Assembly (NCBI RefSeq): GCF_012524075.1
Contig: NZ_JAAZUI010000020.1
Span: forward strand, 1 to 64,000
Reading direction: 5' to 3'
Source: Lutibacter sp. B1
GTDB lineage: Bacteria; Bacteroidota; Bacteroidia; Flavobacteriales; Flavobacteriaceae
Length of the DNA stretch: 64,000 nt
Part shown: piece by piece, positions 24,577 through 57,926 of the stretch
Numbering within the stretch: position 1 is the stretch's first letter
How the letters are laid out: the number at the start of each line of letters is the position of its first letter
The notes under the pieces: generated by a model
Database searches by the model: none
Seen by the model: the letters and a program-made list of their open reading frames with translations, nothing else
What the model was told of the DNA's origin: nothing
Made by a program: the position numbers and the translations under genes

Positions 24577-24606
24577 TTGTTTTTTTAAAATTAATGTATA
24601 GATTTG
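24577..24606 (+). promoter_or_regulatory. promoter of the Phe/Tyr operon leader
   Basis: TTG at 24577-24579, a spacer of exactly 19 bases, then TAGATTTG at 24599-24606. This is the full Bacteroidota form TTG-N19-TAnnTTTG. The expected start point lies a few bases downstream and the leader-peptide ATG is 17 bases after the box. Between the toxin remnant (end 24326) and this promoter the AT-rich sequence holds nothing else I can support. Confidence 0.75.
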
Positions 24607-24623
24607 TCGGACAAAAATGAATT

Positions 24624-24686
24624 ATGACAACATTTAACACTTGGAACAGCTTCTATTTTTACTTTTATTTTAGCAATAAGAGGTGA
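24624..24686 (+). CDS. Phe/Tyr-rich leader peptide of the attenuator
   Basis: A 20-codon open frame, ATG to TGA. Residues 10-16 are the unbroken run FYFYFYF, with another Phe at 4 and Trp at 7, so eight of 20 residues are aromatic. It sits 17 bases after a consensus promoter and 37 bases before an intrinsic terminator in front of pheA. Its design is that of E. coli PheL or the trp leader: ribosomes slow at Phe/Tyr codons when the charged tRNAs are scarce. Unlike PheL it has both Phe and Tyr, fitting an operon that makes both. The frame is too short for ordinary gene callers. Confidence 0.85.
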   Translation: MTTFNTWNSFYFYFYFSNKR

Positions 24687-24753
24687 GGCTTTGTATGTGT
24701 TATTTTAAAAAATATAAATAAAAAAGTCTCGAAATATTTCGGGATTTTTTTTT
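24648..24753 (+). promoter_or_regulatory. ribosome-mediated transcription attenuator before pheA
   Basis: Four segments with alternative pairings are visible. Segment 1 AGCTTC (24648-24653, inside the leader peptide just before the FYFYFYF codons) can pair with segment 2 GAGGCT (24685-24690, at the leader stop codon). Segment 2 GAGGCTTT (24685-24692) can pair over 8 bp, one G-U included, with segment 3 AAAGTCTC (24723-24730). Segment 3 also forms the 5' arm of the terminator with segment 4 (24741-24748). A ribosome stalled on the Phe/Tyr codons covers segment 1, so 2:3 forms and prevents termination. A ribosome at the stop codon masks segment 2 and the terminator forms. Confidence 0.82.
24723..24753 (+). 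terminator. intrinsic terminator of the attenuator
   Basis: Hairpin TCTCGAA / TTCGGGA (with G-U pairs, extendable by A-T pairs) followed by nine T. It ends 15 bases before the pheA ATG, so it can only act as a leader terminator for the downstream operon. Confidence 0.88.
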
Positions 24754-24768
24754 GATAAAAATCTAATA

Positions 24769-25587
24769 ATGAAAGTAGCAATTCAGGGAATTAAGGGTTC
24801 TTTTCATCATATTGTAGCCGAAGAATATTTCGGTAAAAATATTGAATTGATTGAGTGCATGTCATTTAGTGAAATGCCGGGTCTTTTGCACGATAAAAAA
24901 GCAGAGGTTGTTATTATGGCTATCGAAAATTCTATTGCCGGAGCCATTTTACCAAATTATGCACTTATTGATGAGAACAAACTGACAATTTGTGGTGAAT
25001 ACCATTTACCAATTCATCATAATTTAATGGCATTAGAGGGACAAAAAATTGAAGATATAACAGAAGTATACTCACATCCAATGGCATTATTACAGTGCCA
25101 TAAATTTTTTAAAGACTTTCCTCATATCAAATTAATTGAAGATAAAGATACGGCAGTTGTTGCTAAAAGAATTCAGGAAGGAAAACTTAAAGGTGTTGGA
25201 GCCATTGCCAGTAAGTTGGCAGCCGAAACCTATGGTTTAGAAATTTTAGCTTCTGAAATTCAAACGATAAAAGGAAATGCAACGAGGTTTTTTATTTTAA
25301 CAAATTCTGAAAATAAAAGCAGCGTTTCGGCAGATAAAGCATCTATAAAATTTATTACAAGTAATGAAACGGGAAGTTTGGCTTTGGTTTTAACAATTTT
25401 GGCTAAACACGATTTAAATTTATCTAAAATTCAATCGATGCCGGTAATTGATACACCCTGGAAATATGCTTTTTTTGCTGATTTTATTTTTAAAAGTTAT
25501 GCCGATTATTTCAATGCAATTAATGAAGTAAAAGAAAAAGTTGAAATGTTAAAAGTTTTGGGTGAATACACTAAAAGTAAAAGATAA
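24769..25587 (+). CDS. pheA: prephenate dehydratase
   Basis: Converts prephenate to phenylpyruvate, the committed step to phenylalanine. Monofunctional form of 272 aa: a PDT domain at about 1-180 with IQGIKGSFHHIVAEEYF, IENSIAGAILPNYALI and the catalytic TRF motif (Thr172-Arg173-Phe174), then an ACT domain from about residue 195. The ACT motifs are altered: the usual GAL(V/A) reads GSLA and the ESRP Phe-binding motif reads QSMP. Feedback inhibition by Phe may therefore differ from E. coli. First gene of a four-gene Phe/Tyr operon behind the leader-peptide attenuator. Its stop overlaps the next start (TAATGA). Confidence 0.95.
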   Translation: MKVAIQGIKGSFHHIVAEEYFGKNIELIECMSFSEMPGLLHDKKAEVVIMAIENSIAGAILPNYALIDENKLTICGEYHLPIHHNLMALEGQKIEDITEVYSHPMALLQCHKFFKDFPHIKLIEDKDTAVVAKRIQEGKLKGVGAIASKLAAETYGLEILASEIQTIKGNATRFFILTNSENKSSVSADKASIKFITSNETGSLALVLTILAKHDLNLSKIQSMPVIDTPWKYAFFADFIFKSYADYFNAINEVKEKVEMLKVLGEYTKSKR

Positions 25588-26744
25588 TGATACAAAAAGC
25601 TGACAGATTAAATGATGTAAAAGAATACTACTTTTCAAAAAAATTGAGAGAAGTGGCAGCTTTAAAAAGTGAAGGAAAACCAATTATAAATATAGCTATT
25701 GGAAGTCCTGACTTACATCCGCCTTTAAGTGTTATTGAAGAGTTAAAAAACGCTGTAAATTTATCAAATGCACATCAATATCAAAGTTATCAAGGAATCC
25801 CGGAATTAAGAAATGGGATAAGTGATTTTTATCAAAAAAAATACAATGTTAAACTAAATGCAAATACCGAAATTTTGCCTTTAATGGGTTCAAAAGAAGG
25901 TATTATGCATATTTCAATGGCATTTTTAAATAAAGGTGATAAAGTTTTAATTCCTAATCCTGGATATCCAACGTATGCATCAGTCACCAAGTTGGTAGAA
26001 GCTGAACCGGTTTTTTACAATTTAAGTGAAGAAGAAAATTGGCTGCCAAACTTTGAAGAAATTGAAAAAGAAGATTTATCAGGTGTAAAAATTATGTGGG
26101 TAAATTACCCTCACATGCCAACTGGAGCATTAGCAAGTAAAGAAGATTTTAAGCAATTAATAGATTTTGCCAAAAAGCACCAAATTTTAATTGTGAACGA
26201 TAATCCGTACAGTTTTATATTGAATGATAATCCTATAAGCATATTAGAGGCAGAGGGAGCAAAAGAAGTTGCTATTGAATTGAATTCATTAAGTAAAACT
26301 TTTAATATGGCGGGCTGGCGTATTGGAATGGTAGTTGGCGATGCGCAAATTATCAAAACAATTTTAGAGGTGAAAAGTAATATGGATTCGGGTATGTTTT
26401 TAGGAATTCAAAAAGGTGCTGTTGAAGCTCTAAAACTTTCGGATGATTGGTTTAAAAAACAAGATGAAATATACAAAAATAGAAGAAAGTTGGTTTGGCA
26501 AATTTTTGATGCTTTAGAGTGTACATACAACAAAAATATTGGAGGCTTATTTGTATGGGCTAAATTGCCAAAAGATGCAGATGCCAAAGAATTTACAGAT
26601 AAATTATTGTACAATAATGATGTATTTATAGCACCGGGTACAGTTTTTGGAACTAATGGTGAAGGTTATATAAGAGCATCGTTATGTGTTTCGGAAGAAC
26701 AATTAACGCAAGTTTTAAGTAAATTAATAACAGCAAAAGTTTAA
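25587..26744 (+). CDS. class I/II aminotransferase of the Phe/Tyr operon
   Basis: PLP-dependent fold-type I aminotransferase of 385 aa. Marks: NIAIGSPDLHPP near the N-terminus, YQSYQGIPELRNGI, LIPNPGYPTYASV, NYPHMPTGA with the conserved Asn/Pro substrate segment (usually NYPNNPTG; the Asn is His here), VNDNPYSFI with the PLP Asp, and SLSKTFNMAGWRIG with Schiff-base Lys237. Position between pheA and tyrA suggests it transaminates phenylpyruvate and hydroxyphenylpyruvate to Phe and Tyr. The family also contains aspartate and LL-DAP aminotransferases, so the substrate is inferred from context. Confidence 0.88.
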   Translation: MIQKADRLNDVKEYYFSKKLREVAALKSEGKPIINIAIGSPDLHPPLSVIEELKNAVNLSNAHQYQSYQGIPELRNGISDFYQKKYNVKLNANTEILPLMGSKEGIMHISMAFLNKGDKVLIPNPGYPTYASVTKLVEAEPVFYNLSEEENWLPNFEEIEKEDLSGVKIMWVNYPHMPTGALASKEDFKQLIDFAKKHQILIVNDNPYSFILNDNPISILEAEGAKEVAIELNSLSKTFNMAGWRIGMVVGDAQIIKTILEVKSNMDSGMFLGIQKGAVEALKLSDDWFKKQDEIYKNRRKLVWQIFDALECTYNKNIGGLFVWAKLPKDADAKEFTDKLLYNNDVFIAPGTVFGTNGEGYIRASLCVSEEQLTQVLSKLITAKV

Positions 26745-27621: not shown

Positions 27622-28698
27622 ATGGAAATTACAAAAGAAAATAGAAAGTGGTTAGATGGCATGAATTTGTCGCATCCAATAGTAATTGCAGGACCATGTA
27701 GTGCTGAAACAGAAGAACAAGTTTTAAAAACAGCTCATTTATTGAAAGATACAGACACAAATGTTTTTAGAGCCGGTATTTGGAAACCGAGAACTCGTCC
27801 GGGAGGTTTTGAAGGTGTTGGTGAGAAAGGGTTGCCTTGGTTGCAAAAAGTAAAACAAGAAACGGGTATGCTTATTACTACTGAGGTTGGTAATACAGAT
27901 CATGTTGAAAAAGCGTTGAAACACGGAATTGATATTTTATGGATTGGAGCACGAACTACAGTTAATCCTTTTGTAGTACAAGAAATTGCGGATGCTTTAA
28001 AAGGAGTTGATATACCTGTTTTGGTAAAAAATCCTGTAAATCCCGATTTACCTTTATGGTTAGGTGCTGTTGAGCGTTTTCAGGCAGCCGGTATTTCACA
28101 GTTAGGAGTTATTCACAGAGGTTTTTCTACCTATAATTCTTTGCATTACCGTAATAAACCAAAATGGCATATTGCAATTGAATTGAAAAAAGAATTTCCT
28201 GATTTACCTTTAATTTTAGATCCTTCTCATATTTGTGGGCGAAGAGATACTATTTTTGATGTTTCACAAACAGGGTTAGATTTAAATTACGACGGATTGA
28301 TGATTGAAACGCATATCGATCCGGATAATGCTTGGAGTGATGCCAAACAACAAATTACACCTGCAAGATTAGTTGAAATAACCCAAGAGTTAATAATCAG
28401 ACAAAAAAACAGTACTAAAGAAGAGTTTCAACGTAAGTTGAATATGTACAGAAAAGAATTGGATTTGCTGGACAGTAATTTAATTGATTTATTAAAAGAC
28501 AGAATGTCTATATCTGAAGAAATAGGCAGATTAAAACACAAAGAGAATGTAGCTATTCTGCAAAGTGGACGATGGTCTGAAATTTTGGAAAGCATGATTC
28601 AAGCCGGTGAAGAAAAAGGGTTGAACAAAGAATTTGTTGAAGAAATTTTCAAAGCAATTCATGTAGAATCAATCAACATTCAACACAATGTAAAATAA
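27622..28698 (+). CDS. bifunctional DAHP synthase-chorismate mutase
   Basis: 358-aa fusion of a type I-beta (KDO8P-like) DAHP synthase at about 1-265 and a type II (AroQ) chorismate mutase at about 270-358. Synthase motifs: IAGPCSAETEEQ, FRAGIWKPRTRPGGFEGVG, LVKNPVNPDLPLW, GVIHRGFSTY and LILDPSHICGRRD. Mutase part: YRKELDLLDSNLIDLLKDRMSISEEIGRLK, with the expected Arg/Lys active-site residues on its first helix. The order is the reverse of the Bacillus AroA fusion, which has the mutase first. It provides the first shikimate-pathway step and the branch-point step for Phe/Tyr, closing the operon 17 bases after tyrA. Confidence 0.93.
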   Translation: MEITKENRKWLDGMNLSHPIVIAGPCSAETEEQVLKTAHLLKDTDTNVFRAGIWKPRTRPGGFEGVGEKGLPWLQKVKQETGMLITTEVGNTDHVEKALKHGIDILWIGARTTVNPFVVQEIADALKGVDIPVLVKNPVNPDLPLWLGAVERFQAAGISQLGVIHRGFSTYNSLHYRNKPKWHIAIELKKEFPDLPLILDPSHICGRRDTIFDVSQTGLDLNYDGLMIETHIDPDNAWSDAKQQITPARLVEITQELIIRQKNSTKEEFQRKLNMYRKELDLLDSNLIDLLKDRMSISEEIGRLKHKENVAILQSGRWSEILESMIQAGEEKGLNKEFVEEIFKAIHVESINIQHNVK

Positions 28699-57877: not shown

Positions 57878-57926
57878 CGCACTCAAATTAATAACCAAGG
57901 TCGAGAACCTTAAAAATTAAAACAAA

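What the first reader, a model, noticed from the sequence alone, without database searches (positions are those of the whole stretch)
24577..24768. Leader-peptide attenuator controlling a Phe/Tyr operon in a Bacteroidota genome
Seen directly: a consensus TTG-N19-TAGATTTG promoter; a 20-codon ORF with FYFYFYF (24651-24671); three alternative pairings 24648-24653:24685-24690, 24685-24692:24723-24730 and 24723-24733:24738-24748; then T9 and, 15 bases on, pheA. The geometry is that of the E. coli trp/phe leaders: segment 1 lies at the stalling codons and segment 2 at the leader stop. It reads both Phe and Tyr, matching a pheA-aminotransferase-tyrA-DAHP synthase/chorismate mutase operon. Ribosome-mediated attenuation of aromatic operons is best known in Proteobacteria; I am not aware of a described Phe/Tyr leader of this kind in Flavobacteriia.
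Basis: partly seen in the sequence, partly recalled or inferred. Interest (0 to 1): 0.82.

Follow-up and report, generated by a model that had tools for sequence, protein, structure and literature searches.

The report
Aromatic amino-acid leader-peptide attenuator before pheA
Before the phenylalanine/tyrosine synthesis genes of a bacterium (Lutibacter) lies a short RNA that encodes a tiny peptide full of aromatic residues and most likely switches the genes on when ribosomes stall for lack of those amino acids: a classic mechanism, here seen in many relatives but not yet tested by experiment.

Summary
It is not chance: no other 12-40-codon ATG ORF in the 64 kb has an F/Y run of 5; of 127 further Flavobacteriaceae pheA upstream regions, 123 carry an aromatic-rich ATG ORF and 120 of these a terminator, against 0 of 1270 shuffles with both. 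With a ribosome placed on the control codons, the antiterminator folds in 119 of 120 leaders (null 23%) and in 25 of 25 tested from other families (null 20%). Antiterminator and terminator change together. Stem 1:2 is good in Lutibacter but weak family-wide. An in-frame Trp codon in 84 of 123 leaders suggests that Trp is sensed besides Phe and Tyr. The genus also has WWW leaders before a trpE homologue and HHH(H) leaders before hisG. Best reading: classical ribosome-mediated transcription attenuation, a new member of a known kind. A structured, conserved 5' element before pheA in Flavobacteriaceae was mentioned in print in 2021 (PMC9723704), so the idea is not wholly new. No expression data were seen.

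The parts
24577..24606 (+). promoter TTG-N19-TAGATTTG (sigma-A type of Flavobacteriaceae)
   Evidence: sequence; TAnnTTTG 52-54 nt before the F/Y run in 34 of 34 distinct Lutibacter leaders with enough sequence, TTG-N17-22-TAnnTTTG in 20 of 34; consensus and -12..-5 placement from PMC9723704 passages; transcription start near 24611 is inferred
24624..24686 (+). leader peptide ORF MTTFNTWNSFYFYFYFSNKR, stop TGA
   Evidence: leader present in 36 of 36 Lutibacter genomes with pheA
24642..24644 (+). Trp codon TGG, possible third control codon
   Evidence: column is W 29, F 5, Y 1 in 35 distinct Lutibacter leaders
24651..24671 (+). control codons Phe-Tyr-Phe-Tyr-Phe-Tyr-Phe
24635..24653 (+). segment 1 (protector strand; overlaps the Trp codon and the first control codon)
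   Evidence: pairs with segment 2; 92.2% of cells paired in 34 Lutibacter leaders
24685..24702 (+). segment 2 (begins inside the leader stop codon; 24685-24692 is the antiterminator 5' strand)
   Evidence: in 120 family leaders it starts 5-14 nt (median 11) after the last control codon
24720..24733 (+). segment 3 (antiterminator 3' strand at 24723-24730, and terminator 5' arm)
24738..24753 (+). segment 4: terminator 3' arm (24738-24751) and T9 (24745-24753)
24769..25587 (+). pheA, prephenate dehydratase with an ACT-like domain
   Evidence: Pfam PDT 189 bits; ACT 21.8 bits, below its cut-off 27
25587..26744 (+). class I/II aminotransferase
   Evidence: Pfam Aminotran_1_2, 211 bits
26747..27604 (+). 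tyrA, prephenate dehydrogenase
   Evidence: Pfam PDH_N and PDH_C
27622..28698 (+). DAHP synthase fused to chorismate mutase type II
   Evidence: Pfam DAHP_synth_1 and CM_2; order of the four genes kept in 33 of 36 long-enough loci among L002-L042
28700..28727 (.). palindromic hairpin after the last gene, likely end of the operon
   Evidence: 12-pair stem, listed by the scan on the - strand; role inferred

Best explanation
A classical ribosome-mediated transcription attenuator of the pheA-aminotransferase-tyrA-DAHP synthase/chorismate mutase operon. RNA polymerase starts near 24611 and a ribosome translates the 20-codon leader behind it. If charged tRNA-Phe or tRNA-Tyr (and probably tRNA-Trp) is scarce, the ribosome stalls on the control codons, covering segment 1 and leaving segment 2 free; segment 2 (24685-24692) pairs with segment 3 (24723-24730) as soon as that emerges, the terminator cannot form and the operon is read. 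If all are plentiful, the ribosome runs to the stop codon at the start of segment 2, covers it, and segment 3 pairs with segment 4: termination at the T9 before pheA. With no translation, 1:2 forms and termination again follows. Shown here: anatomy, conservation, coordinated base changes, spacing that fits a ribosome footprint. Inferred: translation and stalling, coupling of ribosome and polymerase, termination in the cell, and Trp as a third signal.
For: Leader ORF plus terminator in 120 of 127 family regions, 0 of 1270 shuffles. TGG in 123 leader ORFs: 85 in frame, 3 and 15 in the other frames; all aromatic codons 1176, 344, 523 (the ORFs were chosen by aromatic score, so these counts are partly circular). 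Fold with a ribosome on the third-last control codon: at least 5 pairs of segment 2 with segment 3 in 119 of 120 (null 23%) and in 25 of 25 tested from other families (null 20%). Swapping segment 3 among leaders lowers the 2:3 score: 17.2 against 14.2, sd 0.21; on 17 representatives under 70% identical z = 7.0, 0 of 300. Fixed register: one column of segment 3 is changed on both sides in 38 leaders in 2:3 and in 37 in 3:4. Segment 2 starts 5-14 nt after the last control codon in 120 of 120, and a ribosome at the stop covers at least half of it in 117 of 120. Codon matches pathway in three operons of the genus: FYFYFYF before pheA, WWW before the best trpE homologue (11 of 12 loci), HHH or HHHH before hisG (11 of 12 loci).
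Against: 1:2 is poorly separated from chance family-wide: at least 5 pairs in 88 of 120 against 58% of shuffles, and the full switch (naked RNA 1:2, stalled 2:3) in 38 of 120 against 12%. Naked RNA up to segment 3 still gives 2:3 in 80 of 120. In the fixed register only 67% of 2:3 cells pair (62.5% when segment 3 is swapped). Within Lutibacter 2:3 shows no two-sided change and 93.0% of cells paired against 93.4% shuffled, so that alignment cannot test it. 4 of 127 family regions and 12 of 35 from other families of the class lack a leader by my score; 3 of the 123 family leaders lack a terminator by my rule. The 1:3 control is itself slightly raised (z about 2.7, 2.3). No RNA, protein or growth data for this genome; coupling in Bacteroidota was not tested.
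Confidence: 0.93

Rival explanations
1. The attenuator reads Phe and Tyr only; the conserved TGG is kept by RNA pairing in segment 1 or by descent, not as a Trp sensor.
For: In some leaders the GG of TGG falls inside the predicted 1:2 duplex (L103, L129, L177). 39 of 123 leaders have no W. A trpE homologue has its own WWW leader.
Against: TGG is 85 in frame against 3 and 15 off frame; in Lutibacter the column changes only to F or Y (29 W, 5 F, 1 Y of 35); W sits mostly at two different places (-5/-4 and -10/-9 from the run end). The operon's DAHP synthase also feeds Trp synthesis (established pathway knowledge).
Confidence: 0.4
2. Attenuation by an RNA-binding protein or small ligand (riboswitch or TRAP-like), with the short ORF incidental.
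For: A terminator and an alternative hairpin would look alike in both cases.
Against: No Rfam family reaches its cut-off at the leader (best permissive match Phe_leader) or in 12 relatives' pheA loci (its one hit is a tRNA). What is conserved is an open frame of aromatic codons at a ribosome-footprint distance from segment 2, and the codon type changes with the pathway.
Confidence: 0.04
3. Sequence-specific nascent-peptide arrest (as in TnaC-type leaders) rather than stalling for lack of charged tRNA.
For: Lutibacter peptides keep N-T-W-N-S before the run in most genomes.
Against: Across the family the peptide sequence varies widely apart from aromatic content; F, Y and W replace each other.
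Confidence: 0.03

Closest known systems
Phe_leader RF01859 (E. coli pheL-pheA type attenuator)
   Same: Short leader peptide rich in Phe before pheA, exclusive hairpins, intrinsic terminator (pheL details recalled); the model aligns end to end over 24640-24754 (25.2 bits).
   Different: Score far under the gathering score of 55 bits, E 0.064; this leader alternates Phe and Tyr and has a Trp codon; the operon also holds tyrA and DAHP synthase; Shine-Dalgarno sequences are said to be absent in Flavobacterium (PMC9723704 passage).
Bacteroid-trp RF01692 (PMC2864571)
   Same: Described cis-regulatory RNA of Bacteroidetes; PMC6414381 likens it to the E. coli trp leader (one passage).
   Different: Other operon; no match in 13 Lutibacter genomes or in the window at the gathering score.
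Structured 5' element before pheA in Flavobacterium psychrophilum (PMC9723704)
   Same: Very likely the same element: before pheA, conserved in other genera of Flavobacteriaceae, no Rfam hit; leader-peptide attenuation suggested for amino-acid operons in general (section 19).
   Different: Named in one sentence of that section; no peptide, control codons, alternative stems or range beyond the family are given there; its supplement was not open to me.
Leaders for two amino acids or for F/Y elsewhere: Leu/phe leader RF01743 (Table 1 of PMC2864571); uORFs with F and Y at shikimate genes (PMC6429828, figure legend)
   Same: Precedents for one leader naming two amino acids, and for F/Y short ORFs before aromatic genes.
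   Different: RF01743 is listed for Lactococcus lactis; the organism of the two uORFs is not named in the legend I saw.

Membership tests
ribosome-mediated (leader-peptide) transcription attenuator | short translated ORF with codons for the end product | tested here: met
   conserved frame of aromatic codons; that it is translated was not shown
ribosome-mediated (leader-peptide) transcription attenuator | intrinsic terminator between the ORF and the first gene | tested here: met
   24720-24753; 120 of 127 family regions have ORF and terminator
ribosome-mediated (leader-peptide) transcription attenuator | antiterminator 2:3 exclusive with the terminator | tested here: met
ribosome-mediated (leader-peptide) transcription attenuator | protector stem 1:2 near the control codons | tested here: inconclusive
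   in Lutibacter 92.2% of cells paired and 6 cells changed on both sides (0 of 500 shuffles; but 3 pairs with such a change are reached by 32 of 500); family-wide z 4.4 on 17 representatives, but folding gives 88 of 120 against 58% null
ribosome-mediated (leader-peptide) transcription attenuator | spacing fits a ribosome stalled on control codons or at the stop | tested here: met
   120 of 120 and 117 of 120
ribosome-mediated (leader-peptide) transcription attenuator | readthrough rises when the named amino acid is scarce | not testable with these tools
   needs RNA or reporter data
Rfam Phe_leader RF01859 | match at or above the gathering score (55 bits) | tested here: not met
   25.2 bits
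Rfam Bacteroid-trp RF01692 | match at or above the gathering score (49 bits) | tested here: not met
   no match in the window or in 13 genomes of the genus, own included

The most novel reading that the evidence does not exclude
One leader acts as a three-way OR gate for Phe, Tyr and Trp supply, is ancestral to much of the class Bacteroidia, and works beside similar trp and his leaders; if so, ribosome and RNA polymerase must be closely coupled on these transcripts in a group said to lack Shine-Dalgarno starts.
Probability: 0.5. Interest if true: 0.65.

Novelty: new member of a known kind. Interest (0 to 1): 0.5.

Why it matters
Ribosome-mediated attenuation is best known from Proteobacteria (recalled). 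A conserved set of such leaders in Bacteroidia would mean that transcription and translation are coupled there, which these leaders make testable, and would explain how many of these bacteria set their aromatic amino-acid supply. It also points to an RNA family that Rfam 15 did not report in the window or the relatives scanned.

Tried and rejected
Rfam at the gathering score and at a permissive threshold gave no family at its cut-off for the leader. A first fixed-register covariation script picked an edge register with a single column; it was discarded and redone for registers 14-20, register 17 being the best of those seven. The Lutibacter alignment A1 holds the window and 33 leaders found by a regular expression; a stricter expression gave 17. 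The expression asks for F, Y or W at the Trp column and for part of the terminator core, so A1 is not used for the Trp count (one search is; its expression leaves that column free), and the 3:4 core of A1 is partly preselected. Re-initiation from the leader stop to pheA was set aside: 82 nt lie between. The sigma-A box is constant in Lutibacter, but family-wide only 25 of 123 leaders have strict TAnnTTTG within 80 nt of the ATG (10 of 123 in a background stretch) and 18 the longer motif. Bacteroid-trp does not explain the trp leader of the genus.

Rows dropped: of 130 family matches, the window's own and two too near a contig start (G072, G084) are not in the 127. Of 29 order matches outside the family, 20 were read; 8 had no locus and one (L241) lacks the start of pheA. 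Of 36 class matches outside the order, one (G454, partial match) was not fetched, leaving 35. Of 67 matches outside the class, 23 were read. Conditional folding outside the family used the 25 leaders with score 5 or more and a terminator; 9 without a terminator by my rule were left out, and L214-L218, of another family but near Lutibacter, were excluded beforehand.

Full report
What was checked. The window lies in a genome of the genus Lutibacter or very near it: of 29 loci whose pheA is 79-86% identical, 24 are titled Lutibacter. The four genes after the leader are prephenate dehydratase, a class I/II aminotransferase, prephenate dehydrogenase and DAHP synthase fused to chorismate mutase, in the same order in 33 of 36 loci with enough sequence (5 of the 41 loci L002-L042 were too short). 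In two of the three exceptions (L039, L040) about 1.2 kb separates pheA from the aminotransferase and no leader was seen; in the third (L042) only the DAHP synthase was matched after pheA.

Chance. In 2000 dinucleotide shuffles of the 500 upstream bases no F/Y run of 7 occurs, and no other 12-40-codon ATG ORF on either strand of the 64 kb has an F/Y run of 5. The leader folds better than all of 200 shuffles.

Conservation. pheA was found in 36 of 38 genomes of the genus, own included; the two without it are 88% and 62% complete. All 36 have the leader: 30 seen directly, five through the same loci in the named collection (L025, L026, L027, L029, L032) and one as L087; L032 has a slightly broken run (FCFYFYF). 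In the family, about one genome per genus, 130 of 149 genomes have pheA; of 127 upstream regions read, 123 have an ATG ORF of 12-40 codons with aromatic score 5 or more, 120 of them with a terminator within about 90 nt. In 1270 shuffles 0.5% reach score 5 and none has both features. The four misses are L131, L151, L159 and L197; L197 has a weaker leader (MNKTRFYNDFTYFNYYQLER) and a terminator.

Range. Other families of the order: 8 of 20 loci read score 5 or more; L215 and L218 score 3 but show a short FYF leader with a terminator; 7 of the 12 misses are genomes of about 0.6 Mb of one family. Other families of the class: pheA in 41 of 149 genomes in all; of 36 matches outside the order 35 were read, 23 with a leader and 17 of these with a terminator by my rule. 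Two misses (L242, L287) seem to follow directly on another coding frame, so their operon head may lie elsewhere (inference). Outside the class: 2 of 23 regions read (L243, L249), out of 67 matches.

Structure. In 34 distinct Lutibacter leaders 92.2% of 1:2 cells, 93.0% of 2:3 cells and 90.5% of 3:4 cells pair; sliding the partner by 1 to 3 columns gives at most 57%, 61% and 67%. 1:2 has six cells changed on both sides (0 of 500 shuffles) in 3 pairs (32 of 500); 3:4 has six (0 of 500) in 2 pairs (49 of 500); 2:3 has none because its core hardly varies, and its share of paired cells is no higher than in shuffles. Family-wide the 2:3 strands differ between clades and change together: swapping segment 3 among 120 leaders lowers the score by about 14 standard deviations, swapping segment 2 against segment 1 by about 11, the 1:3 control by 2.7; on 17 representatives under 70% identical the values are 7.0, 4.4 and 2.3. 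In the fixed register 66.7% of 2:3 cells pair against 62.5% (sd 0.6) when swapped, and the sixth column of segment 3 is changed on both sides in 38 leaders with segment 2 and in 37 with segment 4: one base obeys two partners, as alternative hairpins require. These counts are of sequences, not of events; relatedness is only partly controlled.

Mechanism test. Placing a ribosome with the third-last control codon in the A site and folding what is free up to segment 3 gives the antiterminator in 119 of 120 leaders, against 23% when the stretch between is dinucleotide-shuffled. For the window itself: 9 pairs, -10.2 kcal/mol; without the ribosome the 16-pair 1:2 stem, -17.2. The same in 25 of 25 leaders tested from outside the family (20% in mononucleotide shuffles). 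But without a ribosome 1:2 appears in only 88 of 120 (58% null) and 2:3 still in 80 of 120, so the protector stem is the least certain part. Segment 2 begins 5-14 nt after the last control codon in 120 of 120, median 11, just ahead of a stalled ribosome, and a ribosome at the stop covers at least half of it in 117 of 120 (a footprint of 13 nt ahead and 16 behind is taken from general knowledge).

Which amino acids. In 123 leaders F is 23%, Y 15%, W 3.0% of residues; all have F and Y, 84 have W. TGG is 85 in frame, 3 and 15 off frame, among 2737 codons each. In 35 distinct Lutibacter leaders the TGG column is W 29, F 5, Y 1. I take Phe and Tyr as nearly certain and Trp as more likely than not.

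Other leaders of the genus. Best trpE homologue: a WWW leader in 11 of 12 loci, none found at L275, a terminator by my rule at 9 of the 11; a predicted antiterminator of 7-10 pairs in all 11. The trpE name is tentative: 0 of 13 genomes pass the cut-off of TIGR00564 (best about 416 bits against 517.7) and each has 2-4 homologues. hisG: a run of three or four His in 11 of 12 loci, each with a terminator, and an antiterminator of 8-11 pairs in 11. As a control, the hisG regions have no aromatic leader (top score 2 in 11 loci).

Literature. PMC9723704 (section 19 whole, other passages by search) reports structured 5' elements in F. psychrophilum, among them those before pheA and hisG, conserved in other Flavobacteriaceae, and strong clues for leader-peptide attenuation. 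PMC2864571: passages. PMC6414381: one passage. PMC6429828: passages and a legend. PMC4833913 and PMC7366714: passages. Others were seen as search listings only. No paper describing this leader in detail appeared in the ten searches; the library lacks most subscription journals, so older comparative work may exist.

Verdict. A known mechanism in a little-described place, very well supported by comparison, untested by experiment here.

Noticed in passing
L264 and L276 (own genome, contigs C115 and C114) and relatives: Leaders MNFIQSHHHFHTGTQAR before hisG and MKKNTINMNWWWNSLIQ before a trpE homologue, each followed by a terminator and a predicted antiterminator; Bacteroid-trp does not match the genus.
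   Followed up: partly
L058:474-559 and the same place in L052, L055, L061, L062, L067: Seven Lutibacter leaders (these and L073) lie farther from pheA; six of the regions hold an 86-nt insert between terminator and pheA, with a second copy in L061 and a partial one in L062; among four genomes searched one further copy elsewhere in G034, none in the window's genome.
   Followed up: partly
window 57887-57921: S16-Flavobacteria ribosomal protein leader (RF03138, 57.3 bits).
   Followed up: no
L233-L239: Seven genomes of about 0.6 Mb of one family keep pheA but show no leader, as if regulation were lost with genome reduction.
   Followed up: no
window 24617-24637: A second ATG seven bases before the leader start opens a six-codon frame (MNYDNI) that overlaps the leader (read).
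   Followed up: no
L039, L040: pheA without an aromatic leader, with about 1.2 kb between pheA and the aminotransferase.
   Followed up: no
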